DNA of 64,000 bases, from positions 5,835,985 to 5,899,984 of the forward strand of contig NC_088776.1 of NCBI RefSeq assembly GCF_954871325.1, written 5' to 3'. The first letter of the stretch is position 1, and the number at the start of each line of letters is the position of its first letter. The position numbers were made by a program, and so were the translations under genes. The notes below the pieces were generated by a model. The model was not told the DNA's origin. It did no database searches and saw nothing but the letters and a program-made list of their open reading frames with translations. This stretch comes from Gordionus sp. m RMFG-2023 (taxonomy: Eukaryota > Nematomorpha > Gordioida > Chordodea > Parachordodidae). This document shows, one piece after another, positions 1 to 58,300 of the stretch.

Positions 1-1773
1 GTAGTTCCATAAAACCCACTTTATATAATTTGGAAAAGTAGTGTAACTACGTGGGGCTGAAGGGTTTAAGAGGGGAATATAATCCTTCATTTAAAAAATT
101 TTCCCTTCCATAAAAAATAGCTCGTTAATTTTGGCATTTAAATTTGAAGAACGCACTTTTTTCGCAAAAGCATATATTACGCCGGTTTATTTTTAGTATA
201 GTGGCCAGTAATCCAAAGAATTCGATTTTAAAAATGAGCAGTTTTTTAAGTCTTATATCCTATACTCAAGTGAGATATTTAAATAAAAAGTGAAACCATT
301 AATAATACATAAAGAAAAGGAATTTAAATAAATTGTTTATAAATTGTAAACTTAAACTAAACTAAGTAGCCTAAAATCTTGACAAATTATACAAAAACTC
401 GCTACTTTAATTTAAATATTTTGTTATTTCATTAGGTAATGCTCCTCATTTGTAACAGCCACTTCTTTCCATATGTTGTTTGTTTAATTTTAACGAGGAT
501 GTTATCTATTTCAAGCATTGAATTTATAATTAATCATCTTTTAATGTTATATTCTTACATGCAAATCAGATCCAACTTGTTCTCGATATATTTTTTAACC
601 TAATTAATTTCTACCGACGACTGGTATTAAAGATGTTGAAATTTCTGGGAGCATATTTTTTAAAATAAATTTAAATAACAACTAAAAGTTGTAAATTTCT
701 AACCCGCCCGCTCATATTTTAAATATTAAACCCGCTCCTCGTTTGTTCTTTAAAAAATTCTAATCCGCTGACGGATTAAAAACCCGTCCAATGCAGACCT
801 CTAATCCTGATCAACTAAAAACACAGACCCTTAACTTTAGGACTAGTTTTGTAAAGGTCGATTTGAACTTAGACAACAATATTGCATAAGCCTCGAAATT
901 TCTCTAATAGGTACCCATCTCTCTCTGTCATCTATGAACAAAACCTTTAAGATTTGCTTAATATTTATCTGTGTTATGTTAAATAATCTGATTTTGTTTG
1001 TTATACCTTTCGGTGAAATAATTTTTATTTTATACTAACGTTTTTTTTAATATCATAATAACATTACATTTTTTTTGATACCAATTTGAATTTTTATTTT
1101 GACATAATTGGTTATTATTTTATTGTTAAAAAAAGATATAAATGAAAAAAAATAAAATGTTGCCAAAATCTTTTAATTTTTTTTTTTAAAAAAATATATA
1201 AAAATTTATAAAATGACTAAATAAAAACATATATTAAAAGTATGAAGGCTCTAAAAAGAGCTTAATTTTATAATGAAAATGTACCTAAAAAGCAAGTATA
1301 ATTGTGTTTAAAAATTTCCAATTGAAGTTTTAGTTTAAGAAATAAAGATCCGCGGTTTTCGTTTGTTATGCTAGAAAAATTTCGGGATAAAGTTTTAAAA
1401 AAAATATACTGTGAAAAATTGCCGTTAGTTTAAATGACTATTGGCTGAAATATAAAGTTATTTAATTTTGAATATTTATTAATTTTTTTATTTTCCCTAC
1501 AATTAAGAGGGTTTGTGTTAATTGATGTAGGAAAGGATGTACGCAGGTTGCATCCCAAAAAAGGGATTTCCCATTGGACCAGAAGGTGCAGGTTAAGTCG
1601 GGTCTAAGTTATACGCAAATCTTTTGTAATTTTCACGAATAAAAAAATATTCTAATTTTTATTAATATAAAAAAAATAATCTTTCAAAGGTTAATAGTGC
1701 TACAAAAATTTTTATAATTTTTTAAAAATAAAGAAAAAATAAATAATCCATAAATATTTTAAAATGATTTTAG
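1..1773. other. Upstream or intronic region of the carboxypeptidase gene
   Basis: AT-rich sequence with no exon I can support. The first exon recognised downstream opens in the propeptide part of the protein, so earlier coding exons (signal peptide, start of propeptide) must lie in here or left of the window. About 690-800 has C/G-rich stretches ending in a TGCAGACCTCTAAT-like motif, resembling the hAT-type short elements described elsewhere. About 870-980 is a diverged partial copy of the TA-flanked MITE family A. Confidence 0.5.
870..980. repeat. Partial, diverged copy of MITE family A
   Basis: The stretch carries the family A interior in order: AATATTGCATAAGCCTCG, then TCATCTATGAACAAAA, then TTTGCTTAATATTTATCTG. 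The terminal inverted repeats are too decayed to place. Confidence 0.45.
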
Positions 1774-4700
1774 ATTGATAGATTTTCAAAAGAATGAAGC
1801 ATATATAGCACGATTATCAATTAGCATGACCTCTTTCGACTTTGAATACTATCCCAGAATGGCTGAGGTTTGTCTCTCTATTTCAGCATTATTTCCAAAT
1901 ATTACTGCTAATTTTTTAAATCTCCTCATATTATTCAATTATATTCCATATTTTTGCTTAGAAAAATGTTATTCCTAGCACATAAGCCGTGACCCGGTAC
2001 GCCTCATTTCTAAACAATATGTTCTATTTAGCTATATATATATAGTGTCCTCTAAACATCCCGAAAAGGAAAGAGGCCATTTTAGATTATACGGCGCCAT
2101 TTGCTTTTATTTTTAAACCGATAAAATAATAATAAACAAATAATATTTATTTAATTATAATACATTTCGTTTTCTTTCAAATAGGGTGTCCTAAGTTCAA
2201 AATACAAGCTTTGAAAATAATTATTGCTGTTAAACGGATCGTTTAGAGCCGATTTAACGACGGCTACTTCAATATTTTGGCCAGAAAATAAAGCCTAAGC
2301 TTCGAGATTTCAATGATTCCTAGACCTTTGTGCCATCTATGAGCAAAATCTTCAGGATTGCAATATTATTCTGGATTAAATATTGAGTTAGCCTTTTTTT
2401 AAAATCGGCTCAAATCAAACCGTTTAACAACACTAAAAATAACACGGGTAAGGTCAAGGCTTTAGAGCTAAAACGACTTTATTTTAAAGTTTTAAAACTT
2501 TAATGAAAAATAAAGAGTTTAATCATTTTTTTAAGACAAAATTAACATGCAACTTTAACAAAAAATTATTCAAATTCCCTAAAATTTCTTAAATATTTTT
2601 TGCTTTGTTTATGATTTTTAAATTACATTTCAGGTGTATTATTGGTTCGAATTTTTAGCGGAAAAATATCCCAAATTGGTAACAATAATCGATATCGGAG
2701 AATCTTACGAAGGGAGGCGTATGAAAATTCTCAAAGTTATTTTTTCTTAAATTTATTTTAACTACATTAATATTAATTAGTAAACAATTAATTTAACATA
2801 ACATTTAGAGAATAACATTCTTTCAGAAAGGGTGTAGGAAAGCTCTTTGGATAGTAGATTGATGTGTTTAAGTATAGCTATGGCCAACCTTTGTAAAAAA
2901 ACCCTCTTTCTTCTGAGAGTTTGCTGATTTGTGATCCTAAATTTTTGAAGAATGCTATGGCAAGTTTGTCAAAGGTGGTAAGTGTATGATAGGAATGAAA
3001 CAATGGTCATTTAAAATTTCTGTGTATTTGAGAGATTTTATGTTGTTCCTTCTGATCAATGATGTTAAGGGCTTGGTTATATGAGGCCAGGGGGCCTATA
3101 CATGCATATTCCCACACCAATAATTGGCTTCTCCTTCACGGAATTTGAGTGATCCCGCCAGGACGTTTACCGTATAATCTAAAAAGACCCTGGATGTTCT
3201 AGTATAGGAGGTATTTGAGCTGATTTCAAGGCATGTTGGATGATTGAATTACATTGTGTGCCTGATGACTCGACCATTGCTGGAGCGACGATGTAAACTA
3301 TGTCTTCCTTTCATGTCGACGATTTACAACCTGAACAGAGTGAGGGTGGGTGATGGTGCAGTTTAGAAGAATGCCGATGGCATGAGTAAGTTCGTTGTTA
3401 GAACGTTGAAGTTGAAGATTGAGAGAAGGAATGGCCTTGATGAAACTCATGCCCAGTACCATTGAGCAGGGAAGAAAACAGGGTGCGGTCAGTGAATTGC
3501 ATTCTAGTGTTTCAACGCAGCGAGCAACTACCGGAGTGTCTCAGTCTTTCTGTCTATGGGTTGTGGGGGGGGAGGTCAGAGTTAACATTGATCCTTGTTT
3601 CCCAAATATTTATGGCCTCTTAGAATGATAAAAAAAATTATTCTTTTTTTTAAAGGTGGATGTAAATATATTCCCATTTATCGCTTTGCAGGTTCACGAA
3701 TAAAAAATTTTCCAAGTCTAGATTTTTTTTAATAAATAAGTTTTCAGCCAGGCTCCCCGAGTTTTAATTAATTAGATTACATTACAATGAAGATTTTAAT
3801 TTCTAAGGTATAGCTAGCATTACTATTCATGTGCTTTCATTTATTTAACGCAGAGTTCGGTCCGCCACAAGGGTAGGGCAATTGAAAGCTTGTTCAAAAC
3901 TATTTTACGGGCTAGACCAGAAAATATTCTTAAAACTTTGGCCTGGCCCGAAAATATTTTTGACAATATCTCTGGACTTAAACTGACCTCTAACTTAGAC
4001 TTAAAATAGTTTCGAGTTCTAGAAAAAAGGGATTTGATTCAAAAAATTTTTTTAAAAAAAAAGATGTTATGGTTCCAGATTTTAGATCTGATCCGGTTAA
4101 AGATTTTGTTTCCAATCTCTCAAAAATTTAAACACGAGATAAATCAACAAATTCAGTATCTACATGAAAAGTAGAATGGGAGGGGAGGGAAGGGGCATTC
4201 GCTTTAATAACTCTGAGAAGGATAGAGAGTAAATCATGTCTGCAATTTTTTTTCTTCTCTCGTGTAGACACACATAATTTTGAAAAATATAAGTTATTTG
4301 TAAGATACTTTGGATAAGACGGTTGTTCCCATTATTTTTTTAAGAAGAGGGAGTTCTCGAGTGTTCCAGTTTCTAGTTCCGGCTCCAATCTCTTAAAAGG
4401 AGAACCCAATTATGTTTTAATAGATTTTCTATTTAATTTTTTTTTAAAAATTAATAATATAGATAGGGCGCGATACGGGGTCCAAAAAACCTGCCTTTTT
4501 TGTAGATGGTGGAATACACGCGCGAGAATGGCCGACAGTTACTACCGCCATGTATTTTATATCTCGAGTAAACAATTTACATTTTAAAGAAAAAATTAAT
4601 AGAACTAATAATTTGATGAGTTGTTGGAACCTAGAAGATGGACACAAGATGCAAAAGTTATCAAAACGATGAGAGATTTTGTAATGACTGCTGACTTTTA

Positions 4701-15118: not shown

Positions 15119-16160
15119 CAGTGGCATAGGCATGGGGAGGGGGGGAATTCTTAATAACGCTTGATTTTTATGTTTTAAATTTATTATAGATAATATATAC
15201 ACATTTGATTATTTTTATATTTATCAAATAAATTATATATTATTTTGTATTTCATAAAAGTTGTCATATTCTATTTTATAAAAATTTATATTTCTCATTT
15301 TCAATTTGAAAACACAATCATTAATTAATTCATATTTCAACAAATCACATCCTACACCTATTACTACATTGGAAAATCTTCCTGATGGTGATGATAAAGG
15401 TATAATATTTTCTTTAATATTTTTACTTTATTTTATATCATATAGTAAGAGTTCATTCACCACCAACATATCTTCCCATCTCAAATTTGAAAGATCAGCA
15501 TTATTAATTATTTTAGCTACCTTGCCAATTAGTACCTGCACTAATGAAAGGTCTTTTTCAACTTTAAAAAGGTTAAAGACCTATTTAAGGAACACAACCA
15601 GTGAAAAACGTTTAAATGGATTAGCCCTATTGAATATTTATAAGGAGATTATTTTAGATAAAAATTTGATTCTAGATGAATTAGCAAAATCTCAGAGAAA
15701 AGTAGACCTCTCTTTTTAAATTCAAATCAAAAAATAGCAATAAAATTTTATTAGTTTTAATATATAATCAATTTTTTTTGTAAAAAAAGTATTATTTATA
15801 AGATACTATCATCATATTTTTTTAAATACCATTATTTGCATAAGAATTACACATATTTTATATAATTGTAAAAAAAAATTTTTTTTAAAATAGTCTTTAT
15901 ATATTATAATTTTTAATATTAAAATCTATATTATATAAAATATCAACATTTTGAAAATATTTTAATTAATAAAAATATATACATGATTAAATAAAGGAAT
16001 GTAAAATATATAATAAAATACCCTAAAATTTTGTTATATGAAAATATAAAACAATTTTAACAAATCCAAAAATATAAGGAATTAAGTGTTCAAAAAATGG
16101 GAGGTTTGGGGGCTTTAAACCCTCCCCCCCTTCCATGACAAAATCCTGGCTACGCCACTG
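15119..16160 (+). mobile_element. hAT transposon, internally deleted, 8-bp target duplication
   Basis: The left end CAGTGGCATAGGCATGG and right end, complemented, CAGTGGCGTAGCCAGG form the classic hAT terminal repeat. The 8-bp duplication CTACATGG is perfect (15111-15118 and 16161-16168). At 1042 bp it carries only a C-terminal transposase fragment, so it is non-autonomous. Runs of G at the left and C at the right lie just inside the ends. Confidence 0.92.
15306..15719 (+). CDS. hAT transposase C-terminal fragment (dimerisation region)
   Basis: The 137-residue frame ends in the hAT C-terminal dimerisation domain: ATLPISTCTNERSFSTLKRL followed by KTYLRNTT and KRLNGLALLNIYKEI. This matches the conserved 'P.S....ER.FS.L...K..LR..M....L..L.LL.I' pattern of the family. 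The RNase-H-like catalytic core and BED finger are missing, so no transposition activity is expected from it. The first third of the frame is probably non-coding sequence joined by deletion. It lies between the ends of the 15119-16160 element. Confidence 0.8.
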   Translation: MKTQSLINSYFNKSHPTPITTLENLPDGDDKGIIFSLIFLLYFISYSKSSFTTNISSHLKFERSALLIILATLPISTCTNERSFSTLKRLKTYLRNTTSEKRLNGLALLNIYKEIILDKNLILDELAKSQRKVDLSF

Positions 16161-18680: not shown

Positions 18681-19148
18681 TGAAATTATTACTATTCCTT
18701 ATGACTTTTCAAGTTATTAAAATAGGATGCATCAATATTTGTTTTATTGGTTACCGAGGACAACCATTGAATTAAGGTAAATTTATAAAAATATAAATTA
18801 TATTGAAATATATTTTAAAGGAATACAGAAAATCGGAATACATAAAGAAAAAACGAATATTAATCCAATTTTTTGCATATTTTAATGTATTTTTTAAATC
18901 TGTTTTGTTATATATTATATATTTGATCGTCATTTATTTTTTAAGTATTATGCAAAAATAAAAAAACATATAGTTACATCTTCTTAATTTTTTGCTTTTG
19001 ATATATTTGCATTGCATATAATAAGTCAAATGTGACAGATTTCTTTATAATTGACTAAAAGGCAATCCACAAATTTTAATAATAGACTTGCACTTGATCT
19101 TTATTTTAAAAATATTACCACGAAAAATTTATAACAACACATTGAGAT

Positions 19149-20585
19149 GAATCCCGGAAAAAAACCCCCGGAAAATAAACCCCCGGAAAATAAACCCCCC
19201 CCCCCCGAAAATAAACCCCCAGGAAAAAAAACCCCTGGAAAAAAACCTCCAGGAAAAAAAAAACCCCCGGAAAATAAACCCCAGGAAAAAAAAACCCCCG
19301 GAAAATAAATCCCCAGGAAAAAAAACCCCCGGAAAAAAAATTCCCCAATAATTTTTTTTCATTTTTATAGAATTTACTTAAGACCTAATAATATAGGTAT
19401 ATTTTTATTTGGCCTACTCTTCATAAAAAAATTCTTAAATAAGAAAAACTGATGTTTAAATTGGTACTGGGAAAAAATGCCTCAGTAAAATAACTATGAA
19501 TTGTAAAAAATTTTTGCTATAGTAAAAATATAATACCATCTTTAAATATGATATTAAATAGACTAAATTTGACATAATAAGAAATGTTTATTTTATTGGT
19601 AAATCATGATTATGTATATACAAATTTTATAATTTATAATAATATTATATGGGTTGACATCGAATATTGAAGGAAATCGCTTTTATAAAATCTGGAAGGC
19701 TTCGCACCCCATCACGGTATTCTTCGCAAAGTTTCTTTAGCTGAATCTGGTTGTTAGAACTCTGCGATTTTGATTTCGATGTCCAACTACCTACGCGCCA
19801 TCTTTCAAGTTTGGTTTCATCGGCAGCCACCTCGCATTTCATTTTTTTAATGAGTACCCAGATTGATGGGTGTTTATTCCCAACCAGATTAAAAAAACGA
19901 TGATTCCAACCTTCGCATTGGTTATTTGTTGGTTCTTCATCTGAGAGAGTGCTCTGATTCGCGTTCCAGGTTTCTGGAGGAAATCGAGGCTCAATTCGAC
20001 CTGTTTGGGATTTAGAATTGCTTTTTATGACCTCCCTTGATACTCTATTGACATAATTTTTATCGAAATAATCAAGAATATCCTTACCATTGCTCGGAGT
20101 ACCCGATCTCAGGAATGTCATTGCATTGCCCATATCACATAACGGAACGAATGCTAAGCCGTTTATCATACCACAAAAAAAACTTAGAGTATCATCGGTC
20201 CTGTATTCGTTTTCCAGACCCAGTTTCTGAATTTTTCTATGTGTACTTTGACACAAATGGTAAAAACATCCTCTAATTACGATGTGATTATTAACTTGCA
20301 ATTGACTAAATACCAATTCAATATAAATTATTGCTAGATTATACTTAAATATGAGAGTGTATAAAAATAATCCCAAGGGTTTTTTTTCCTGGGGGTTTTT
20401 TTCCGGGGGTTTTATTTCTTGGGGGTTTTTTTTCCGGGGGTTTTATTTCCTGGGGGTTTTTTTCCTGGGGTTTTATTTCCTGGGGGGTTTTTTCCGGGGG
20501 TTTTTTCCTGGGGGTTTATTTTCCGGGGTTTTTTTCCGGGGGTTTTTTTCCGGGGGTTTTTTCCGGGATTTTTTTTCCTATTACC
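19149..20585 (-). mobile_element. MULE transposon with tandem-array terminal inverted repeats
   Basis: 1437 bp between perfect 9-bp target duplications. The left end (19149 to about 19340) is an array of a 13-16 bp unit, CCCCCGGAAAATAAA and variants with CCAGG or longer A runs. The right end (about 20378-20585) is the same array inverted. The outermost unit is AATCCCGGAAAAAA on both sides. The interior holds a partial Mutator-like transposase on the minus strand, so the copy is non-autonomous. The right end has about 15 extra bases (GGTAATAGG when complemented) that the left lacks. Confidence 0.85.
19645..20376 (-). CDS. Mutator-like transposase, C-terminal half
   Basis: 243-residue frame. 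It opens within the MULE core: IRGCFYHLCQSTHRKIQKLG corresponds to the conserved 'GC.FH..Q' segment after the second catalytic Asp, GLAFVPL follows, and NNQCEGWNHRFFNLVG is the motif with the last catalytic Glu, followed by HPSIW. The zinc-finger N terminus and the first catalytic Asp are absent, so no full transposase is encoded. The first residues run close to the inner edge of the right array. The C terminus is charged and Ser-rich. Clearly related to, but different from, the transposase at 29465-30692. Confidence 0.8.
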   Translation of the reverse strand: MGLFLYTLIFKYNLAIIYIELVFSQLQVNNHIVIRGCFYHLCQSTHRKIQKLGLENEYRTDDTLSFFCGMINGLAFVPLCDMGNAMTFLRSGTPSNGKDILDYFDKNYVNRVSREVIKSNSKSQTGRIEPRFPPETWNANQSTLSDEEPTNNQCEGWNHRFFNLVGNKHPSIWVLIKKMKCEVAADETKLERWRVGSWTSKSKSQSSNNQIQLKKLCEEYRDGVRSLPDFIKAISFNIRCQPI

Positions 20586-20599
20586 CATTGAGATCAGTA

Positions 20600-22270: not shown

Positions 22271-22282
22271 AGATTGTGTACA

Positions 22283-24599
22283 ATGCGTGCTGCTGGAAAT
22301 GGGAAGGCAGGAAATAAATTAAAATGTTCTCAGCAAAGGTCTAGTGGAGAATTCAAGAATTGTTCTTTAAAATTTGTTATAGAAAAATTAATAAAGAAGA
22401 AATTGTTATCCTCCAATGCCGAGATGATGATAGAAAATCATTATATTGAGACAGACTTCAAATTAACAAGAGTTGGAACGACGAACAAAATAAAATATAA
22501 CTATAATATGAGAACGCTGTCTATCATTCTTCACTATTATTCGCCTAAAGCGTACGCGCACCTTCAAAGATTTTTCAGGGTCCCATCCGAAGCTAGGATT
22601 AAAAGATGGTGTATTAAAGAGGAGATAGGACCTGGTTAGAATGAATAAATAAATACCCATTATTCTGTTTTATTATTATTTTTAAAGGGTTTCTAGCTGT
22701 ATCATTGAGGAAGATTAAATATTATGTTACCCTTCGATCCCAACCACAATATTGTTGTGTCGTGTTAGCCGAAATGCAACTAAGGCCAAATATACCGAAA
22801 GCTAGCAGGGCATTATTTTTTATGGCGGTCGCGTTAAACGATTCATGGAGGATTCCTATAGGATATTTTCTGGTTAGTTCGTTGACTGACCAAGTGGCAA
22901 AGGTATTGATATTGATTCGATATATTTCGGAAGCGGGAGCGATTTGTAAAGCCGTCGTCACTAGGAATCCATCCCAAGGGATTGCCCGAGTTTTTGGCGT
23001 AACCTTGGAAAATCCATATTTTATACCTCCTTTTCTTGGCGAGAAAATACATTTTATTTATGACGCGTGTTATGTTCTAAAATGGTTAAGGATTTTGATG
23101 AGTAATAACGGAACATACAAAAATAAAACAGGAAAAGTAAATTATACCGAATATAATTTCTCTATTTATTGTATATTTTTTTTTACTAAAGAGGGCTGAT
23201 TGGAAATTTATTCGAAAATTGTATGATTATCAATGTAGTCAGGTGATTAGCGCCGCAACTAAGACAACCTCACCTCACACATATTTCCGGCGTTTGAAGA
23301 TAAATGATCAACACTTGCAAATTTTTAATGAATCGGTAGCGAATTCGCTCCGATTGTTATTAGCTTTACGCGAACCTGATTTTATGTATTGCCAAGGAAC
23401 TATCGATTTCATAGATATGATTAATAGGTAATGTAAATAATTATTTTTCTAAAACGAATGTACATTAAATACATATATACACATATACACACACTTATCA
23501 TTTTTTAGATTGTCTGACATCTTAAATAGTAGAAATTTTTGCGCAAATGGACATAAATCTCCAATTGATAGCACTAATTTTTATTCTATAAAACATTTTT
23601 TCGTACAATGTGCCGCCTACCTTAAAAGCCTATCCCTCACGAATGGAACCAAAATGATAAATCATCATAAAGCGTTTATAAAAGATTTGCTAATAACGAT
23701 GAATAGTGTTATTGGTTTAGCCGAGGAGTTGATTATAAAAGAAAAATCACTAAAGTATACCTTATTTTATTATAATATTAAATTAAAAATAAAATAATAT
23801 TTTTAGATATTTGATGACTGGCAAACTGTGTCACGATTCAGTGGAAATTTTTTTTGAGATCTTAAGGAGCAAAATCGGGGCTGGTTATGATCTCGATCCC
23901 TATGCCATACAAGGGACAAGAGCGTTGAGAACCATGTTAATAGGTAATTTTCCCATGTTCGATAACGGGAACTGTATTGACTCGTCGGAGAATTTTGTGT
24001 GTTATGATAGGGACTCAATTCATGATTTCGATACGGATAAAGCAGAGAGAACAAATCAAAATTTACAATACATAAACTTGGAGGAAACTAAAGCAAATTT
24101 AATTACACAAAATATACCACTTTTGTCGATGTCTACCGTAAATATTTTTGACTATATTGGAGGCTTCATAGTCAGAAAATTAATATTGCTCGAAAGGATT
24201 GAGTGTAATACTTGTATAATTTTTTTGCTAAAAAAGAATTGTATCTTTCATGATTCCCTTCATTTTTTGAATATCATAAATGCCGTGGGTCAGGTTGAAC
24301 CGTCGTTTGCTGTCATCAAAATCTGCGAGATAACCGAACGAGCCTTCCGTTCTCTCGATATAAAGAATCAAATTTTGAATGACAGAATATATGAAATGGT
24401 AAACAATTTTGTTTTCGACTCCATCCTAAATTGTAAATATTTTGATACCTTGAAAAATCACTTATTGGATCAAGAAATCAATACCTTTACCCACTACGAA
24501 ATAACGATTAAATTGATTATAAAATGTTACATAGACATTAAACTCTATTATAAAATAAGAATTGCAAAGTTTAAAAAATACATTCTAAATGATATTTAA
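22283..24599 (+). CDS. P-element/THAP9-like transposase-derived gene, five exons
   Basis: Exons 22283-22634, 22688-23136, 23192-23427, 23509-23754 and 23807-24599 join at GT-AG sites into one uninterrupted 691-residue frame. Introns are 52-81 bp. Landmarks in order: LHYYSPKAYAHLQRFF (P-element 'LH.YSPKAY..LR'), GFLAVSLRKI, CCVVLAEMQLRPN (the usual 'LDEM' block, Asp replaced by Ala), VVTRNPSQGIARVFGV (the usual Asp-Gly after Thr is missing), FIYDACYVLKWLR ('FD..H..K' block), CHDSVEIFFEILRSKIGAG (family 'QD..E.FF..IR', both acids kept), and a C-terminal IGGFIVRKL...CNTC block. The THAP finger is not seen. The start is the first ATG of the open frame; an upstream exon is possible. Intact frame plus loss of two catalytic acids suggests either a domesticated gene or a mildly decayed element. 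Family is near certain, status is not. Confidence 0.85.
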
Positions 24600-27639: not shown

Positions 27640-28309
27640 GTAAAAATTATGATTATTTCCGTGAAGTGTGAGGATCAATTAACAAAACCTATGCCAATAT
27701 TTAGAGTCTTAATTGATCCTAATTGATCTTCAAACCAAACATCAGCGGAATCAATGGCTAATGAGTTATAAGCAAAATAAGAAAAGTGTTAAATTTTGAA
27801 GCTGGCGGAACGATTTGAGGATCAATTACCGAAACCTATACCATTGTATAGCCCGTTAATTGATCTTCTATTCGGAAAGCAGCGGAATAAAACGTTCATG
27901 AGTTATGGGATAAATAAGAAAGTGTTGGCACTTTGCCTAAACGGAAAATAAAAATGATCATGATCTGAAACTTGGCGATAATGTAGTATTCAATGTGTAC
28001 ATTAATAATCTGCAAACCGCATATCCGTATCATTAACCGTAATTGGGTTCTAACGTTTTTAAAAACTTGAAGTTAGCGGAATTTTTTTTAAAAGTGAGTA
28101 TTAATTACCGAATTCTGCCAAAGAGAGCGTTAATTGAACCTCCAGAATCTTTAAACCGCATACCAACGGAATAAACCGTTTGTGAGTTATGGGCAAAATC
28201 AAAAAATTGGCACTTTGCCAAAACCCGAAAATAAAAATGATTATGATCTGAAACTTGACGGTTATGTAGTATTTAAAATTTACATTTAAAACCTGCAAAT
28301 CGCGTATCC
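27640..28309. repeat. Degenerate satellite, left part
   Basis: Landmarks recur: GAGGATCAATTA at 27667 and 27817, GAGTTATGGGCAAAAT and variants near 27765, 27899 and 28184, ATGATCTGAAACTTG near 27960 and 28240. The full unit is about 280 bp, and the first copies are a shorter form of about 150 bp. The array continues at 31723 after the MULE insertion. Confidence 0.75.
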
Positions 28310-28650
28310 GGTTCCACGTCATTACAGAGAAACCATTACAGAGAAAACAATTACGGAGAAACTTTTACAGAGAAAACAATTAAAGAGAATGTCGTTTAAA
28401 GAGAAAACAATTAAAGAGAATGTCGTTTAAAGAGAATTTTTTTATAGAGAATTATTTTATAGAGAATGTATTTTACAGAGAAACTTTTACAGAGAAAACA
28501 ATTAAAGAGAATGTCGTTTAAAGAGAATTTTTTTATAGAGAATTATTTTATAGAGAATGTTTTTACAGAGAATGATTTTATAGAGAATGATTTTATAGAG
28601 AATGTTTCTACAGAGAATGATTTTATAGAGAATTTTTTATAAAATTTTAT
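28310..28650 (+). repeat. Left array-type terminal repeat of the MULE
   Basis: Some 20 units of 12-17 bp, each centred on AGAGAA and separated by T-rich words. Larger blocks are themselves duplicated (the CAATTAAAGAGAATGTCG block occurs three times). Confidence 0.85.
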
Positions 28651-29464
28651 TTAAAGAATATGATTATATTATAAAAAATGTTAATCTATATAATATATAA
28701 CATTTTTGTATAAATTTGTGTAATTATTACTTAGGGTGTGCATATTGTTTTTCTACTGGCCATATACTATGTGTTAACTTTTATTATAAATATTAAATAT
28801 TTCTATATGTATGAAATACTTACAACAGACCAATCTTACATCTCAGTTTACCATCATTTATTTAATACATTAATATCTTAATTATCTTTTTGCTAAACTT
28901 TCTTAAATTTGTTCATCATTTGAAATAAAGTGAGTTTTTTAGAAAGAGATACTAATTTTGAAAGAAATCGGTCCAATAGATAAAATTTAATTTTTTTATA
29001 TCATTATATTTGGTAGCATTAAAATAGAGTAAAATTGACACAATGCAAAACTCTATTTTTGAATTTCAGAAAGTTTTATAATCTTATATCATGTTTAAAT
29101 AAAATTTTCGAAGGTTACAAATTTTAAATTATAGATGTGACACACGATCGTACACCTCTATGTGGTTATCAAAATATTTTTATGGCAGTAAAAATGTTTA
29201 TCAATTGAAAACAATCTATGTTATGTTCTATATAAACGACATTCTCTATCAGTGTTTTCTCTATAAAAGTTTCTCCGTAATTGTTTTCTCTATAAAAGTT
29301 TCTCCGTAATTGTTTTCTCGATAAAAGTTTCTCTATAATTGTTTATTTTGTAAATGTTTGTCACTAAAGACCATTTTAGAATATTTTAAGTAATAATTTA
29401 ATTATTTTTTTAAGTAATAATTTAATTATTTTCTTTTTAAATTTTGATAAATTTTTTTTAAATT

Positions 29465-30692
29465 ATGGCTGAATTTATTTTAAGTAGTCGAAACAATAAG
29501 TTACTACTTCTTGATTTTTACTTATTTCAAAAGGAAAAAACATCTAACCAAACAACCTATTGGAGATGTATTCAATTCAATGTGGACGAATGCAGTGGAC
29601 GTGCAAGAACTAAGAACGGAATCCCTATATTCCACAATCATAAACATAACCATGTACCAGACATTGCAGATATTGAAGCAAGAAGAGAGCTAAATAGAAT
29701 TAAACAAGTGGCTTCTAGTTCCCAATCTCTGCCCAATAATATAATAGCCGATATATCTAGCAATATATCCATAGCCGCCACTGGTAAAATGCCCAGTTGT
29801 TCCTTAATTAAAAGGACAATTCAAAGGAAAAGACGCCAAGTAGGAAGAGCGCCTGCCGTTCCTGTAAGCCTGATTGACTTGGTCATACCAATCGAATATC
29901 AATTATCCAATAATAATGAACAATTTTTACTTTATGATAGTGGTCATCATGATCACCGATGCATAATATTTTTGATTGATTTTGAATTAGCAGCCTTATC
30001 TGCTTTTAAACAGTCATTTCCAATGACTGCAATGCGCGGGTGTCTGTTCCATATGTCGCAATGCATATGGCGCACGGTCCAGAAAAATCCCCGCATTTGC
30101 AATGCATACAAAAGCGAAACTAATTTTGCTATGTATATAAAGATGTTAATGTCACTGGCATATGTCCCAGTTGAGGACGTAATTCACGGATTTGAGGAAT
30201 TATGTGCCTCCATATTCTATCAAGAAAATAGGGCTATTCTCGCCCCCTTGATAGAATATTTTGAAGAGACATGGATTGGGAAAATGATAGCGATGGAGAG
30301 GAGGTCTCCAATATTTGGTATTTCCCTATGGAATTGTTATGAATCGACACTAGCTAGTGAACCGAATACAAATAATTCTGTAGAGGGCTGGCATCGGAGT
30401 TTTTCGTCTCATATAAGTTCCCATCATCCAACAATCTGGAAATTTATAAAGAGTTAGTAATTATATTGTATTTTAAATTTTAAAAATCTTTTCATTTATA
30501 GCTCTCAAAGACGAAGATAGCCTTAATAGTTACAAATTGGAACAATATTCTTTAGGACTATTAGCTCCAGTGTCAAAGAAAGAATATCGAGAAAGATCCA
30601 AAAGGATTCTTCTAATTGTTGAAGATTTCCATTCAAGAACCATGATGGATTATTTAAGGGCTTTATCCCACAATTTAAATTTAAATGTTTAA
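29465..30692 (+). CDS. Mutator-like transposase with FLYWCH finger, spliced, internally deleted
   Basis: Exons 29465-30452 and 30502-30692 join at GT-AG over a 49-bp intron to give 392 residues. Residues 1-65 form a FLYWCH zinc finger (TYWRC, CSGRART, HNHKHNHVPD). The MULE core follows: LIDFELAALSAFKQSFP (second catalytic Asp), MRGCLFHMSQCIWR, LAYVPVEDV, NNSVEGWHRSFSSH (catalytic Glu). The stretch that should hold the first catalytic Asp ('DGTF...P') is absent: the frame jumps from FLLYDSGHHDHR straight to IIFLIDFE, a loss of very roughly 80 residues without breaking frame. It lies between the array ends of the 28310-31722 element. An active enzyme is unlikely; the finger may still bind DNA. 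Confidence 0.88.
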
Positions 30693-31249
30693 TTTAATAA
30701 TATAATTGTATTTTTTTATATTGGTATATTATTTATACTATGTTTATTTGGATTTATTATGAATAAAAATTTATTTGATATTTCGAAATGAACATTGCTA
30801 ACCTCTTATTTGGTATTTTATCTAGGTTTATCTTATAATAACTTCATTTACAAATGGTATTCTATTCTCTAATTTGGAATTCACAAAATATAAGAAGCGC
30901 TCTATATAACATTTTTTTCTTATTTATCATCATTTTAAGATTATCTAAGGTTTATGATATTAAATCACCGATAAATTACACCAAAAGCTCAATAATTATA
31001 GTTTTCTCTATAAAAATTTCGCTAGTTATTTATGAAAAATAGTAGTGACTAGTTATATTTAAAAAAAGAAAACTAGTAACTGTAACTAGTTATATTTCTC
31101 CAAATTTAGCTTAACTTAACTAATTTCAGTTACATTTCCAAAGTAACTTTTAACAACATTATATAAGGTAATTATAATATTTAATATTATTTCAAATACT
31201 AAAAATTTTTTTCCTTGAAATAATTACACAAATTTTTTAAAAAATAATC

Positions 31250-31722
31250 ATATTCTTTATAAAAAATTCTCTATAATAGTTTTCTCTATAAAATAATCAT
31301 ATTCTTTATAAAAAATTCTCTATAATAGTTTTCTCTATAAAATAATCATATTCTTTATAAAAAATTCTCTATAATAGTTTTCTCTATAAAATAATTCTCT
31401 TTAAATATAAAAAATTCTCTATAATAGTTTTCTCTATAAAATAATTCTCTTTAAACGACATTCTCTTTAATTGTTTTCTCTGTAAAAGTTTCTCTGTAAA
31501 ATACATTCTCTATAAAATAATTCTCTATAAAAAAATTCTCTTTAAACGATATTCTCTTTAATTGTTTTCTCTGTAAAAGTTTCTCTGTAAAATACATTCT
31601 CTATTAAATAATTCTCTATAAAAAAATTCTCTTTAAACGACATTCTCTTTAATTGTTTTCTCTGTAAAAGTTTCTCTGTAAATGTTTTCTCTGTAATGGT
31701 TTCTCTGTAATGACGCGATACC
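31250..31722 (-). repeat. Right array-type terminal repeat of the MULE
   Basis: Inverse of the left array: units built on TTCTCT. From about 31250 to 31400 an extra block (ATAATCATATTCTTTATAAA followed by TTCTCTATAATAG) is repeated three times. The last 40 bases mirror the left tip. Confidence 0.85.
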
Positions 31723-32080
31723 CGCGTATCCGTATCACTTGTCGAGTTATAACGGTTTTAAAAACGTGAAGTTAGCGAAATTTTTTTTAAAAATTGAGGA
31801 TCAATTACTGAAAATTATGCGTAAATTGATGCTCCAGAATCTTTAAACGGCATACCAGCGGAATAAACCGTTCGTGAGTTATGGGCAAAATAGAAAGGTT
31901 TTGGCATTTTGCCAAAATTTAAAATTCGTGCAATCATTTTTTAGTTAAAGCCAATATTTAGTGTCTTAATTGATCCTCCCAATTTTTCAAACGGAATGTC
32001 AAAAAATTAAAGGAAAGTGAGTTATCAACAATAAATATTTCAAGGTCAAATTTCGACCTGACAAAATATGAAACTTATAT
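31723..32080. repeat. Degenerate satellite, right part
   Basis: Resumes the unit broken by the MULE: GTATCACTTGTCGAG, then GTGAAGTTAGCGAAATT, GAGGATCAATTACTG and CGTGAGTTATGGGCAAAAT, in the same order as in 28030-28210. Confidence 0.75.
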
Positions 32081-41378: not shown

Positions 41379-44100
41379 TTATACTTTCATATTGGCTCTA
41401 ACTTTATGGCCCCATTGAAGTTTTGGCCTTCCTCTTTTACGTTTGCCCATCACTTCCAATCTTTCAACTTTATTTCGACAGTTCATAGGCCTTCTCATTG
41501 TGTGCCCATACCACCTAAGTCTGTTTACCATTAACTTAGTCTTAATGGGCACTACCTTTAAACTATTTAGTATTCTTGCAATTGGGTGCACCCATCTTTC
41601 TTGAGCATATCTCAGCAATCATCCTCAGCATTCTCATCTCCATAGTTTGTAGACTTCTCTCGTCTGATTCTTTGGTTGGCCATGTTTCAGAACTATATAG
41701 AATAGTTGGTTGTACTATGGAACTGTAAATTTTTCCCTTTAACTTGTGTGGGATTCTTTTGTCAAATAGCACTCCAGATAAAGATCTCCACTTAAATCCA
41801 CCCTTGATTAATCTTATCTTTACCTTTTTCACAGCGTTTGTTTGTATAGTGGAGCCCAAATATTTTCAGCTTTCAAAAAAAAAAAAAAAAAAAACATTTA
41901 TATCAATACTCTCCGCGTTCATCTCCTCCTATCACCATATACTCCGTCTTTTCTCTATTTACTTTTTAATCCGTGCGTTTCTAGGATATTTATCCAATTC
42001 ACTAACCTTTCTTTCATTTCATCCTTGGATTCGGCAAGTATCACAATATCATCTGCAAATATCATATTCCACGGGACTGTTTGAGGTATAGACCGTGCTA
42101 ATACATCTATTACTGTAATGCAGAGAAGTGGGCTGAGAGCCGACCCTTGATGAACTCCTTCTGCTATTGTGAAGCCTGCTGAAGTACCTGTTGTAATACG
42201 GACCATTGTTGTATGTCCCATATACATATCCTCTATTATTCTTATATATTTTTCGGGAACTTTTTTGCGGCGTAGCGCCCACCAGATAAGTTTTCTTGGG
42301 ATTCTATCGAAGGCCTTTTCTAGATCGAGAAAGACCATGTAGCTTTTTGTTCTTTTCCCCGTATTTTTCACTCATTTGCCTAATTGCATGGATAGCATCG
42401 GTTGTTGATCTTCCAGGTATAAAGCCAAACTGTGTCTCTCCTATTTCGACTATATCTCTTAATCTTTTTTCTATTATTTTTTCGTATAGTTTGTGACAGG
42501 ACATTGTTTTATGCTCCTTGTAATTTTTGGGCTATTGTGTGGATCCCCTTTATTTTTGGAAGATAGAAACCAGATAGCTCTGCCTCCATTTTTTGGGGAA
42601 TCTCTCATTTCAAGTATTTTTTATTGTACAGATTTGTGGAGAGATGTATTCCATCATTCCTAGTGTTTTTTAAGGCTTTCTATTGGAATATCGTCTTGGA
42701 CCCTAGCTTTGTTGTTTTTCATATGCTTGAGACATGTGATTATTTCTTTATTCTGTTATAGGTTGTATTTAAGGCTTTGACAAGGGGAGTGTTCGTCGAG
42801 GATGCAACAGGGAATAAAGTTGAGGGCTCCTGAAAATATTCTTTCCATCTATTCATTATTTCTTTTCCTTTATTATCAATTTCCCATCTTTATTTTTGAT
42901 TACTTTCGGAGCTCCGTTTATATCCCTAGAGTTCTTTTCTTCGCTGTTTGGCTAATCTGTATATTTTATTTTGCCCTTTTGGTATGTAGATCTTCTATGA
43001 TGTCAATGTGCTGTGATTTGGTCTCAGCCACCGCCTTTTGTAGCTAATCTCTTGGATTTCTTGTATCTTGACTTGTCATCTACTTCTTGATTTGTACTAT
43101 ATTTTGCAAAGGGCTTTTTTCTCCTGTATAGTGGTTTGTACCTCTGATTCTACCACCATAGTTCTTTGTGTGATTTGTTGCCTCCTCTTGTCAAGCCTAG
43201 CGTCGATTTTGCAGTGTCTATTAATCTGGATGAAAGGTCTGTCCATATTTTTTCACTGACTTGTGAGCAATTTATTGTTTCAATGTTTGCATTGATTGCA
43301 AAGGCATCTGTCATTGTTTTTAATTTGCCCCATTTGATGCATGGTTCCAGTTTTTTATCTATTTTGAGTGATTTTATTTGAGATTGTAAATCCATGATTA
43401 GTAGCTTGTGTTGCAGCATGATATCTTCCCTGATGACTTTGCAGTCTATTACATCTTTTAATCTTTCATGAGAGATTAGCATGTAATCTATCTGTGTTTT
43501 CCTAGTACCCACTTTCATATGTTATTAAATGACTATCTTTTTCCTATAGCAGGTGTTGGTTAAGGCAAGGTCGAAGGCTTCAGCAAATTTCCAAAGACAA
43601 GCCTCATCATTTCTTTCTTCGTATCCAAAACCACCATGATGCCTTTTGTAGCTATCTCTTGCTTTCCCCACATGCGCATTTAAGTCACCACCAATTATGA
43701 CTAGGTCATCCTTAGGGATTTCCAATACGGCTTCATCAAGGATAGCTCTAAAGTCATCTTTCTTTTCTTCCTTGCAACCCGTTTGAGGAGCATATACTGG
43801 ATAGGATGTGTAGTATTGATTGACCAATGCAGAGTTTTATCTTTCATTAGTCTATCAGAGATCCTGTTGACTTCTACAACTGAGGAGGCTAAAAAAAAAA
43901 AAAGACACTGTTCCTATTGATAACAAGTCCATTATAGTACAATTTATACCCATCTCCAATCATCAAAGTCTTCTGTCCTTCCATTTCGTCTCAGACAAAC
44001 GCTATATCAACTTTCTCCTGTTCAACATTGATGCCAATTCTCTCGTCTGGCCTTGCTGTCCCAATATTCAAACTTCTGTCTTGTCTTCTTTGCTTTGGAC
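41379..44100 (-). pseudogene. RTE endonuclease-reverse transcriptase, frame-broken
   Basis: Minus-strand pieces, 5' to 3': an endonuclease start near 44100-43860 (IGINVEQEKVDIAFV, then EMEGQKTLM); 43827-43525 (VYAPQTGCKEEKKDDF, IIGGDLNAHVGKARD); 43518-43150 (KTQIDYMLISHERLKDV); a linker; 42504-42304 (TQFGFIPGRSTTDAIHAIRQ); 42371-41955 (FLDLEKAFDRIPRKLIWWAL, GVHQGSALSPLL, FADDIVILAES); 41859-41563 (FDKRIPHKLKGKIYSSIVQP, TILYSSETWP); 41618-41379 (RLRWYGHTMRRP). These are the endonuclease and reverse-transcriptase motifs of RTE elements. At least five frame changes or stops interrupt it, including a 17-base A run near 41877. The FADD catalytic site is intact in sequence. Confidence 0.88.
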
Positions 44101-55382: not shown

Positions 55383-58300
55383 ATGAATGATCAAATCAAC
55401 CCGGGAGTCAAATCAGAGAGGAAGATCGATTTATACAAACGTTACGGGATAAACCACGCTATTCAAGAATCCCAACCTCTCAATAATAGCATCGATGATT
55501 CCCCCTGGGATAAAACGATCATCAATGGCGGGGCAAAGGATGCCGCGGGAAATCATCACCCAAATAACCAGAGTCCAAATGATTTGAAGGGTTCTGATTT
55601 ACAACACAAAAGGATACAACCGTACCCAGATATCTCCGATAAAAATTTCGACCACGTGTTCGTTATAAAAAATAAGCGAGCGAAATCTCTCGGGGATAAA
55701 TGTTCGATGGATACCCTGGAAAACTTTGGTAGTGGCAGGAGAAACCATCAAAATAAGTTGATTCTACTACCTGACCGTAGATACAAAAGCTTATGCAATG
55801 CGAATACTTTACAAAAGTTCGGCTTCGAAGATGAAGAACAGCAGGAAGAAAGAGAGGAATGGAGTAGCAAAGCGGATTTCTTGCTGTCAATTATAGGATT
55901 CGCCGTCGATCTCTCCAACATTTGGAGATTTCCCTACCTCTGTTACAAAAATGGAGGAGGTCAGATTATCTTATTACTATGTCAATTTTTTTTTAGCCAT
56001 CCCTCTGTAAATGAAAAATATTTTGTTGATAGTAATTTACTATCACAGGAAATGAGTCGCTAAAAGTGGGCTAACCGAACAAAATGGAATACGAACCGGA
56101 AGTGAGAGGTTACGGAGAAGTTACCGTGGGGTTACGAATTATATAATGGGGGCAAATAAAGGGTGCCACAATAGTTACCACCCATAAAGATTTATTCTTT
56201 TTAAAAAATAATTAGGGGCGTTCTTAATACCGTACACTATCATGTTAATATTTGGAGGTGTCCCACTATTATATATGGAGTTAGCCCTAGGACAATACAA
56301 CAGGGCCGGAGCTGTTGGAATATGGAAAATGGTCCCTTTCTTAAAAGGTTAATTTATCCATATATATATTCTAACCAAGTTTTCGTCGATTAAATTTATA
56401 CTTTGAGTCAGATTTGAAAAAATAGATTACTGTATAGTTAAATTTAGTGTTAGACGAAAAATTTTTGATATAGTCTTATTTAAGGGCCCATGCCAAAGTA
56501 TCCGCTAAACATAATATTTATACTACTTCCTATCTCTTAAAAAAATATATCCCTTGAAAGATAAATAGATTTGAAATACATCAAAGATACATATTTCGAA
56601 ATTTTTATAAAGCTCAAAAAAGCTAATATAATAATTGGAAAAAAAATAAAAATAAAAAAATTGAATTTAAAATAAGTAATTATCCTTCTATTTTTTAAAA
56701 TTATTTTTAAAATAACACAATATTTTTCATCCTTTATACAAAAAACAAAAAAAAACTCCATCATCAAAAAAACAATAATTTTTTCCGATGAAAGAGAAAG
56801 CGAAAAATAAAATTCAACGATGTTTTTGACATTTTCATCTAACAGTGTTGTGCAGATTTAATTTAAAATATTTCCATATTTTTTTAAAAATTTATTTGAA
56901 AATAAAATTATTTGACTTGCAAAAAAAATTGCTAGAATAACATATTTATTTATATATTCTTATCAATTTTTTTTACAAGTTAAATAATTTTATTTTCAAA
57001 TAAATTTTAAAAAAATATATGGAAATGTTTTAAATTAGATCTGCAAAACACTGTTATATTTAAATTAAGATTATAGCAATGTCATATAATAATATCCTAG
57101 ATTGAGGATGTATTCATATTAAAAGTGTACATCAAATGAAAAACAGCTGGGGACGCCATGGTTACCCGTATCATTATTAAAAAATTTTAAACGAGAGGAC
57201 AATTGATTCCTATGTCTGACCCAAACTTTATTAAAGAATCGCCTGATCATTGAGATAATAAGGAAGCAAGTTATTCAATTTAAGAATAATTACTATAAGG
57301 GTTATCAAAATGGCGGCTCCAGCTGATTGTAACCTAACTTTTTTTTTAAAAAAATCCTTTTTTACATATTTTAATTTTATGTTCTTATATTTAAAAATAT
57401 ATGATATAATATATAATTACGTAAATAATTTAATTGTTTGAAATAAATTTATACTTTTAAATATTATTTATAAATATACATAACAAGGAGTTTATCATCA
57501 TTATAAATATATTCAAAATATAAAAAAAAATTGCAAATTTAAATAAAATTTAAATTGACCATGTAAAGGAACGGGATACGCCGCCATACTGATGACCTTT
57601 TACGTTTCGTTTTATTACCCCGTAATATGCGGCTACGCGTTTTACTATTTGTTCGCCTCTTTCAAATCGAAGTTACCCTGGATCACGTGCGATAACTCTT
57701 GGAATACTCCGGCATGCGTAGAACATAGAACGCGTAACATGTCCCTGAAACCGTCTCATATAGCACCTATCCACGGTCTTAAGACTGCTAGCGAAGAATA
57801 TTTTGAGTTACAAAAAAAAATATCAGATGTTAATAAAACTAACTTTAATATAGCATTTATTACCTAATTGAAATTGTAAGATTCCATAAAAAAATAATTG
57901 CCTTTGGCATCTCGGCTTAACTTACTATGTTAAAATAGTATCAAAAAAAATATTAAATAGCTTGGAGGACATCAATTGGTAAAATATAGAATACCATTTT
58001 ATCCGGGGACTTCTAACTCCCCCTTCCCTTCCGCACCCAAACACCTGACGATTTTACCACTCACTACCTCCCCCCCCCTTAGAAATTTTTCCACTTATAC
58101 CCCTGAAAGAATCTACAAGCCCCCTTCTTGATGATTATTTTTGACTCCTAGCTTATAAAACGCACTAAGAACCCCAAAATTATCAATAATTGATACAAGA
58201 TAGATATAGCATGATTTGGAGTCACCCCGTAACGCGATACTTTATCACGCGATACTCTACCGCGCGACATTTAGTCATATTTTCAAAGTCGATTATTTAA

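What the first reader, a model, noticed from the sequence alone, without database searches (positions are those of the whole stretch)
28301..31731. MULE whose terminal inverted repeats are arrays of short AGAGAA-type units, with readable empty site
Both ends are 340-470 bp arrays of short degenerate tandem units in opposite sense. A perfect 9-bp duplication (CGCGTATCC) flanks them, and removing the element restores a regular satellite unit (compare 28010-28090). Boundaries are therefore proven inside the window. Tandem-repeat ends could give many transposase binding sites and could expand or shrink by slippage.
Basis: partly seen in the sequence, partly recalled or inferred. Interest (0 to 1): 0.8.

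Follow-up and report, generated by a model that had tools for sequence, protein, structure and literature searches.

The report
Jumping gene with tandem-repeat ends
A horsehair-worm genome carries a jumping gene of the Mutator kind whose two ends are long arrays of 15-base repeats; a relative in the same genome has nearly the same outermost tips but a different repeat word at the same spacing, which hints that the spacing matters more than the word.

Summary
Window 28310-31722 (3413 bp) is one insertion in a satellite-like repeat, flanked by a perfect 9-bp duplication, with a readable empty site. Its ends are inverted arrays of 14-16 bp AGAGAA units. The host is Gordionus sp. (Nematomorpha).

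It is a MULE of the Phantom/foldback-like type. The family's tips have 301 genome matches (control 0). Of 26 paired copies, window copy included, 17 have perfect 9-bp duplications. Other copies encode FLYWCH+MULE transposase (annotated length 467 aa); the window copy lacks 77 codons including the first catalytic Asp. A second copy with that deletion sits elsewhere, so a deletion derivative was mobilised in trans.

This architecture is known (Tm1 in Meloidogyne, Muta1/Muta5 in Aedes): a new member of a known kind.

New here: family 3 in this genome shares the asymmetric tips (12 of 12 and 11 of 12 bases) but has an unrelated unit (AATTCGGCGC) at the same period. In the capped lists of three families, 82 of 82 convergent tip pairs under 9 kb carry one tip of each type. 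Arrays grow by single units and by 91-bp or 49-bp blocks. The core lies in either orientation.

Best mechanism (inferred): tips mark cut sites; phased arrays are repeated transposase-binding sites.

The parts
28301..28309 (+). Left 9-bp target-site duplication CGCGTATCC
28310..28321 (+). Left tip GGTTCCACGTCA (L-type)
28322..28658 (+). Left terminal array, about 20-22 units of 14-16 bp ending in AGAGAA; inner part with a 91-bp six-unit block
29226..29359 (-). Internal array of the same unit, opposite sense to the left arm, upstream of the transposase ORF
29465..30457 (+). Transposase ORF (330 aa as read through; exon 1 probably ends at 30452): FLYWCH domain + MULE domain missing 231 bp (77 codons) with the first catalytic Asp
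30453..30501 (+). Inferred GT-AG intron (49 bp); the splice agrees with the annotated 467-aa protein P0002
30502..30692 (+). Inferred transposase exon 2 (to stop, ...LSHNLNLNV)
31254..31710 (-). Right terminal array, about 27-30 units, opposite sense, with 91-bp and 49-bp higher-order blocks
31711..31722 (-). Right tip GGTATCGCGTCA (R-type, read on - strand)
31723..31731 (+). Right 9-bp target-site duplication CGCGTATCC
19149..20585 (-). Second array-ended MULE family (family 2) in the same window: 15-bp unit CCCCCGGAAAAAAAA-type, tips GAATCCCGG / GGTAATAGG, TSD CATTGAGAT at 19140-19148 and 20586-20594, transposase fragment 19645-20376(-)

Best explanation
A non-autonomous copy of a Phantom-type (FLYWCH + MULE transposase) cut-and-paste transposon with foldback-like ends. 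SHOWN: one 9-bp-duplicating insertion; fixed tips, one of each of two types per element; arrays of 14-16 bp units behind the tips; unit number that changes by single units and by 91-bp or 49-bp blocks; loss of the first catalytic Asp in this copy and in one other copy at a different site. INFERRED: the catalytic machinery recognises the short asymmetric tips as L and R ends, while the N-terminal FLYWCH finger binds the array unit many times at a fixed spacing of about 1.4 helical turns. This loads several transposase molecules per end, gives specificity and tolerates changes in unit number. The copy, or its parent, was moved in trans by a full-length transposase from elsewhere. Arrays grow, shrink and homogenise by slippage, unequal exchange or gap repair. 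Exchange between inverted arrays can also invert the core.
For: Pfam FLYWCH and MULE domains in an undeleted copy, with D-D-E motifs that I read by eye from its translation. 17 of 26 paired copies have a perfect 9-bp TSD. Tips: 301 family-1 and 695 family-3 matches, controls 0. L+R pairing in 20 of 20, 18 of 18 and 44 of 44 neighbouring convergent pairs under 9 kb in the capped lists. Spacing: 870 of 886 single-unit spacings are 14-16 bp (98.2%). Family 3 has nearly the same tips but an unrelated unit, 8 of 10 spacings 14-16 bp. The shared 231-bp deletion occurs in L029 (window) and L033, which differ by 9 substitutions in 3418 columns, one 49-bp array block and three indels of 1-3 bp, with different TSDs. 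Published precedent: yeast-active Muta1 (12-bp repeats with 3-4 bp spacers), and Galileo, where a footprinted proximal site led to further binding sites in the TIR tandem repeats.
Against: No binding or transposition was measured. The array-to-FLYWCH link is by analogy; the Tm1 authors left open whether their FLYWCH finger, which lacks a histidine, binds DNA. Family 3 rests on one fully read copy (L064), whose transposase holds stops and frameshifts. Three of 26 paired copies have no TSD in the test used. L031 (9-bp TSD with one mismatch) has only 2 right-arm units and L046 (weak 8-bp TSD) only 1, so a long array may not be strictly needed, unless they decayed later. In the family-1 tip list two convergent pairs of the same tip type lie 10.2 and 14.6 kb apart (C1:73148519/73158746, C1:53210513/53225121), beyond my 9-kb limit and not read.
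Confidence: 0.72

Rival explanations
1. Only the 12-bp tips (plus perhaps the first unit) matter for transposition. The arrays are neutral tandem repeats that expand by slippage once a short repeat exists next to the tip.
For: The unit next to the tip is more constant than inner ones: ACCATTACAGAGAA in 15 of 26 left and 17 of 26 right arms, while inner positions show up to 17 variants. The tip unit itself (21 of 26 identical at each end) is no fair measure, because many copies were chosen by it. L031 and L046 have very short right arms. Array growth by simple unit or block duplication is obvious.
Against: Slippage alone does not explain why 98.2% of 886 single-unit spacings stay at 14-16 bp while the variable half of the unit differs, nor why family 3 with an unrelated unit and family 2 with different tips have nearly the same period (8 of 10 spacings 14-16, and 20 of 22 spacings 13-17). 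All seven period-15 rows of the window's TRF table lie in these two elements or in the family-4 fragment; other tandem repeats of the window have other periods.
Confidence: 0.2
2. The arrays serve expression or silencing: they carry promoters, or fold back as double-stranded RNA or hairpins, and are not primarily transposase-binding sites.
For: The internal array sits just upstream of the transposase ORF (29226-29359). Long MULE TIRs are linked to promoters and siRNAs in the literature (passages of PMC6446971).
Against: Does not predict a fixed period or arrays on both ends; no transcript or small-RNA data were looked at.
Confidence: 0.07
3. A satellite or assembly artefact rather than a transposon.
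For: The insertion lies in satellite-like DNA.
Against: Empty-site junction, 9-bp TSDs that differ from copy to copy, a transposase gene, 301 tips with control 0.
Confidence: 0.01

Closest known systems
Tm1 (Meloidogyne; Mutator/Foldback, Phantom-type; PMC3169594, abstract, Results and first part of Discussion read)
   Same: Composite TIRs with 1-9 consecutive tandem units, mostly 14 bp, different asymmetric 7-bp motifs at the two ends (both in 24 of 39 and 20 of 22 elements; A2 at both ends in one), TSD most commonly 9 bp, FLYWCH+MULE transposase of 496 aa, non-autonomous derivatives
   Different: Different tip and unit sequences; Gordionus arrays are far longer (to 55-62 units) with 91-bp higher-order blocks; the core is found in both orientations; another family of the genome has nearly the same tips and another unit
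Muta1 and Muta5 (Aedes aegypti; PMC5225508, passages and section 7 read)
   Same: Long TIRs made of a terminal motif plus 9 tandem repeats (Muta1 12 bp + 3-4 bp spacers, Muta5 15 bp), 8-9 bp TSD, two- or three-exon transposase, many non-autonomous copies; in Muta1 derivatives the repeat number varies
   Different: Muta1's terminal motif is an imperfect 10-bp palindrome; sequences were not compared here; Muta1 is shown active in yeast, Muta5 was not
Phantom MULEs (Marquez and Pritham 2010, not held, recalled; group 20 of PMC6446971, passages read)
   Same: MULE transposase, FLYWCH in some members, 8-10 bp TSD where given, TIRs from none or short to long
   Different: Nematomorpha not among the host phyla listed for group 20 in the passage read
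Galileo (P superfamily) of Drosophila (PMC3688188, abstract and passages read)
   Same: Long TIRs with tandem repeats that contain further transposase-binding sites; between species conservation is restricted to ~40 bp at the extremities
   Different: Unrelated transposase superfamily
Drosophila FB/FB-NOF and sea-urchin TU elements (recalled only)
   Same: Inverted ends built of short tandem repeats
   Different: Not compared here

Membership tests
Mutator-like elements (MULE superfamily) | MULE transposase domain with D-D-E catalytic residues | tested here: met
   For the family: undeleted copy L022, PF10551 2.6e-14 over profile 2-98; motifs ADGTF, IDFE, VEGWH read by eye. The window copy itself lacks the first D and scores below the Pfam cut-off.
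Mutator-like elements (MULE superfamily) | 8-11 bp target-site duplication | tested here: met
   9 bp in the window; 17 of 26 copies perfect 9 bp, 4 with 1 mismatch, 2 weaker, 3 none
Mutator-like elements (MULE superfamily) | Terminal inverted repeats | tested here: met
   Arms up to 170 nt at 98% complementarity, 112 nt at 90% at the tips
Phantom (FLYWCH-MULE) | N-terminal FLYWCH finger joined to the MULE domain | tested here: met
   PF04500 3.1e-12 in the window, 4.3e-12 in L022; named relatives outside Gordionus among the 120 listed of 334 hits are arthropods (aphids, copepod, firefly, mite, spider) at 37-46% identity, unnamed ones up to 53% over part of the query
Phantom (FLYWCH-MULE) | Placement inside the Phantom clade of a transposase tree | not tested
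   No tree with canonical Phantom sequences was built
Foldback-like (composite, tandem-repeat TIR) architecture | TIRs made mainly of short tandem units, variable in number between copies and between arms | tested here: met
Tm1-type ends | Different short motifs at the two outer tips, one of each per element | tested here: met
   20 of 20 family-1 and 18 of 18 family-3 pairs, 44 of 44 family-2 pairs, all under 9 kb and from capped lists
Tm1 | Tm1 motif sequences (A1 CGGTTAA, A2 CCTACCC, unit CGATTCAGTATCCGC) | tested here: not met
   Compared by eye: tips GGTTCC/GGTATC and unit ...AGAGAA differ from the motifs printed in PMC3169594; so Tm1-like, not Tm1
Active transposon | Present transposition | not testable with these tools
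   Near-identical copies with perfect TSDs suggest recent movement (L029/L033: 9 substitutions in 3418 columns) but no activity data

The most novel reading that the evidence does not exclude
In these array-ended MULEs the tips and the ~15-bp period are the constrained, functional parts, while the word repeated in the array can be wholly replaced. Each lineage's FLYWCH finger and its array word would then co-evolve like a lock and a many-toothed key read at fixed helical phase. Two families in one genome with nearly the same 12-bp tips and unrelated units (AGAGAA versus CGGCGC), plus family 2 and probably family 4 with further unrelated 15-bp units, would be snapshots of such turnover, and the rule would extend to Tm1 and Muta5.
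Probability: 0.4. Interest if true: 0.72.

Novelty: new member of a known kind. Interest (0 to 1): 0.48.

Why it matters
PMC3688188 (2013) states that whether the tandem repeats of Foldback and Phantom elements act as binding sites is untested, and PMC6446971 calls the reason for TIR-length variation unclear. One genome here offers a natural experiment: families with nearly the same tips but different array words, copies whose two arms differ in unit number, and cores that lie either way round. That makes the question directly testable in vitro and in a yeast excision assay. It also extends array-ended MULEs to Nematomorpha; two searches that named the phylum (11 papers, all listed; 157 papers, 10 listed) showed no paper on this by title and abstract start, but full texts were not read.

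Tried and rejected
Satellite or assembly artefact: rejected by TSDs, empty site and other copies. A phage relative: tblastn of the ORF against phages, no match. Relatives in viral contigs: one stretch matched a pattern, none confirmed by tblastn. NCBIfam for P0002: only IS1249 and IS256 models far below their cut-offs. Tip of family 4: a guessed tip GGTNNCRCGCGACACTTTATC gave 80 hits at <=2 mismatches against 32 in the control, none exact, and many coincide with the array places, so the guess was wrong and family 4 has no known tip or transposase. A claim of microhomology at the 231-bp deletion was dropped after the alignment. The 15-bp spacing in the family-4 hit list is built into the pattern in part, so I do not count it as an independent test. 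Core inversion: reversed cores need at least 3 changes on a 22-copy tree (three changes may be one gain and two losses), so more than one event, but the route (inversion or tip exchange) is not resolved. A search of the whole genome by transposase protein or Pfam family never ran. The Phantom paper of 2010 is not held.
Full report
WHAT IS THERE. The element is 28310-31722 (3413 bp) between two copies of CGCGTATCC (28301-28309 and 31723-31731). Its left end begins GGTTCCACGTCATTACAGAGAAACC; its right end, read inwards, begins GGTATCGCGTCATTACAGAGAAACC. Behind each tip is an array of 14-16 bp units that end in AGAGAA, in opposite sense on the two sides: 20 AGAGAA in the left 350 bp, 27 TTCTCT in the right 470 bp, none in the wrong sense; 500 first-order Markov resamplings never exceeded 2 and 3. 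The inner units form a six-unit block of 91 bp, present in both arms (98% complementary over 170 nt; units spelled). A shorter array of the same kind in right-arm sense lies inside the element, upstream of the ORF (29226-29359). Joining the flanks with one TSD copy gives a sequence that aligns across the junction, with small gaps elsewhere, to the neighbouring satellite unit (in one search, with one extra element base at the join, 27880-28199, 80% over 323 columns). The finding is therefore confirmed.

HOST. A protein 97% identical over the full length of the L022 query is annotated as LOC135929050 of Gordionus sp. m RMFG-2023, on a contig of 93,749,283 bases, which is the length of contig C1 of the window's assembly. 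Gordionus is a horsehair worm, phylum Nematomorpha.

THE TRANSPOSASE. The window ORF (29465-30457, 330 aa) has a FLYWCH finger (3.1e-12) and only the second half of the MULE profile (positions 52-98, below the Pfam cut-off). Copy L022 has a 407-aa first exon with nearly the whole MULE profile (2-98 of 99, 2.6e-14). The window copy lacks 231 bp (77 codons) with the first catalytic Asp of the ADGTF motif. An inferred GT-AG intron of 49 bp and a second exon complete the protein; the join agrees with the annotated 467-aa P0002. Copy L033 on the same chromosome carries the same deletion, differs from the window copy by 9 substitutions in 3418 aligned columns, one 49-bp array block and three indels of 1-3 bp, and has another TSD (CCTAATATC). 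A copy without the catalytic Asp has therefore been moved, so transposase must have come from elsewhere. The 49-bp difference shows array change on the time scale of about 0.3% divergence.

THE FAMILY. The tip pattern has 301 matches (<=2 mismatches) and its reversed control 0. I fetched 31 loci, one of them the window copy: 20 were chosen because both tips were listed close together, 11 because array or internal DNA matched. 26 of the 31 held a tip pair at <=4 substitutions: 17 perfect 9-bp TSDs, 4 with one mismatch in 9, 2 with one mismatch in 8, 3 without. The other 5 (L041, L047, L048, L049, L051) showed one tip or none and were dropped before the counts below. Unit number per arm varies widely: left 7-55, right 1-62 by the looser count. 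By a strict count, which stops at mutated units, the maxima are 55 and 61 and the arms are equal in 1 of 26. Growth is visible as runs of one identical unit (L038 left arm, L044 right arm) and as repeats of the 91-bp block (L026 right arm). Of 886 single-unit spacings, 135 are 14, 544 are 15 and 191 are 16 bp, together 98.2%. The unit next to the tip is ACCATTACAGAGAA in 15 of 26 left and 17 of 26 right arms; inner units vary more.

TIP RULE AND CORE ORIENTATION. Among the first 100 exact tip places listed for family 1, 20 neighbouring convergent pairs under 9 kb exist; all 20 join one GGTTCC-type (in one case GGTCCC) and one GGTATC-type tip. Two convergent same-type pairs lie 10.2 and 14.6 kb apart; I did not read them. 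The transposase core reads away from the GGTTCC tip (forward) in 14 of 26 copies and the other way in 10; 2 copies have no core. On a tree of the 22 copies with the 3' half of exon 1 (13 forward, 9 reversed) the label needs at least 3 changes, forced by well supported branches. So core orientation has changed more than once, most clearly in L027 inside an otherwise forward group. Inversion between inverted arrays is the simplest route, but not shown.

OTHER ARRAY-ENDED FAMILIES IN THE SAME GENOME. Family 2 lies in the same window (19149-20585, TSD CATTGAGAT). Its unit is a 15-bp CCCCCGGAAAAAAAA-type word; 20 of 22 spacings are 13-17 bp. Its tips are GAATCCCGG and GGTAATAGG (146 matches to each tip pattern, controls 0); 44 of 44 convergent neighbours under 9 kb in the two 100-place lists join one of each. 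Of 12 family-2 loci fetched, which reach only about 1.5 kb from the match, 2 showed a 9-bp TSD in a simple test (L052, the window copy, and L056), 3 gave none, and 7 did not show both arrays. Its ORF has no Pfam hit above cut-off itself, but many of its relatives carry PF10551. Family 3 came from a catalytic-motif pattern (94 sites at <=1 mismatch, control 0), not from a tip search. L064 holds an element at locus positions 270-4630 with TSD GAGCTCAGG, tips GGTATCACGTCA and GGTTCCACGTCA, and a unit with AATTCGGCGC; of 10 spacings read, 8 are 14-16 and two are 26 and 32. Against the window element the L tip is identical in 12 of 12 bases and the R tip in 11 of 12. The arrays share no match at E<=0.01; only short matches of 31-51 bp lie elsewhere. 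The transposases are about 35-40% identical over the main pieces, FLYWCH fingers 43%. Its tip pattern has 695 matches, control 0; 18 of 18 convergent neighbours in the 100-place list are L+R. By contrast L065, whose transposase is 74% identical to family 1 (FLYWCH 63%), lies beside AGAGAA-type arrays. Only one family-3 copy was read in full, and its transposase holds stops and frameshifts. A fourth array word, ACGCGACACTTTATC, occurs 86 times (<=1 mismatch, control 0), inward-facing in 21 of 21 opposite-strand neighbours 0.2-3.1 kb apart; its tips and any transposase are unknown.

MECHANISM. Shown: insertion by 9-bp duplication, fixed asymmetric tips, phased arrays, array turnover, movement of a deletion derivative. 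Inferred: tips position cleavage; arrays bind the FLYWCH end of several transposase molecules at about 15-bp spacing; unit number is free to drift because several sites suffice. Analogies: in Galileo a footprinted proximal site led to further binding sites in the TIR tandem repeats (PMC3688188, abstract and passages); Muta1, with 12-bp repeats and 3-4 bp spacers, transposes in yeast (PMC5225508, passages and section 7). Against: the Tm1 authors left open whether their FLYWCH finger binds DNA, and L031 and L046 have very short right arms.

COMPARISON. Tm1 of Meloidogyne has nearly the same plan: different outer motifs A1 and A2, tandem units of mostly 14 bp, TSDs most commonly 9 bp, FLYWCH-MULE protein (PMC3169594, Results and part 1 of Discussion). 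Ten of 12 long-TIR families of Aedes have short subterminal tandem repeats of 9-15 bp, so not all may share the ~15-bp period. A 2026 survey of 322 arthropod MULEs reports TIRs of 13-1193 bp and suggests cooperative binding; the word tandem does not occur in its main text (PMC13359780, passages). The window element is a new member of a known kind. What I did not find in the listings and passages is the combination of shared tips, replaced unit and kept period inside one genome; Galileo shows a related pattern between species.

VERDICT.

Noticed in passing
window 19149-20585: Second array-ended MULE family with its own 15-bp unit, 9-bp TSD and two different tips; 40 places with long matches to its ORF region, the window included (only 40 of 471 candidates were scored).
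   Followed up: yes
window 58232-58267; genome-wide: Fragment of a fourth 15-bp array word (ACGCGATACTTTATC / ACGCGACACTTTATC); 86 genome matches, facing inward in pairs 0.2-3.1 kb apart; no tip or transposase identified.
   Followed up: partly
G000:C1:78484769-78489129 (L064): Family 3 element with nearly the window element's tips but an unrelated array unit; 695 tip matches genome-wide.
   Followed up: partly
L065 1363-1487 and 3796-3921: Inverted 39-bp x3 repeats around a family-1-like transposase (74% identical), beside an AGAGAA-type array ending ...GACGGGATACC; the relation of the two arrays is unclear.
   Followed up: no
L039 (G000:C4:17779761-17785906): 6.1-kb copy with perfect TSD that holds extra ORFs (215 and 139 aa) unlike the family's transposase, perhaps a nested insertion; not searched.
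   Followed up: no
window 22274-24599 (+): Fragments of a P-element/THAP9-like transposase (PF12017, PF21787, weak PF22824).
   Followed up: partly
window 15306-15716 (+): hAT dimerisation domain ORF (PF05699, 3.2e-9).
   Followed up: partly
window 41958-42371 (-): Reverse-transcriptase fragment (PF00078, 4.9e-20).
   Followed up: partly
window 55383-56063 (+): ORF with the start of a sodium:neurotransmitter symporter (PF00209 positions 1-41, 2.4e-18), perhaps a first coding exon.
   Followed up: partly
window 27700-28300 and 31732-32000: Host satellite-like repeat of roughly 270-285 bp period (estimated from the offsets) in which the element sits.
   Followed up: no
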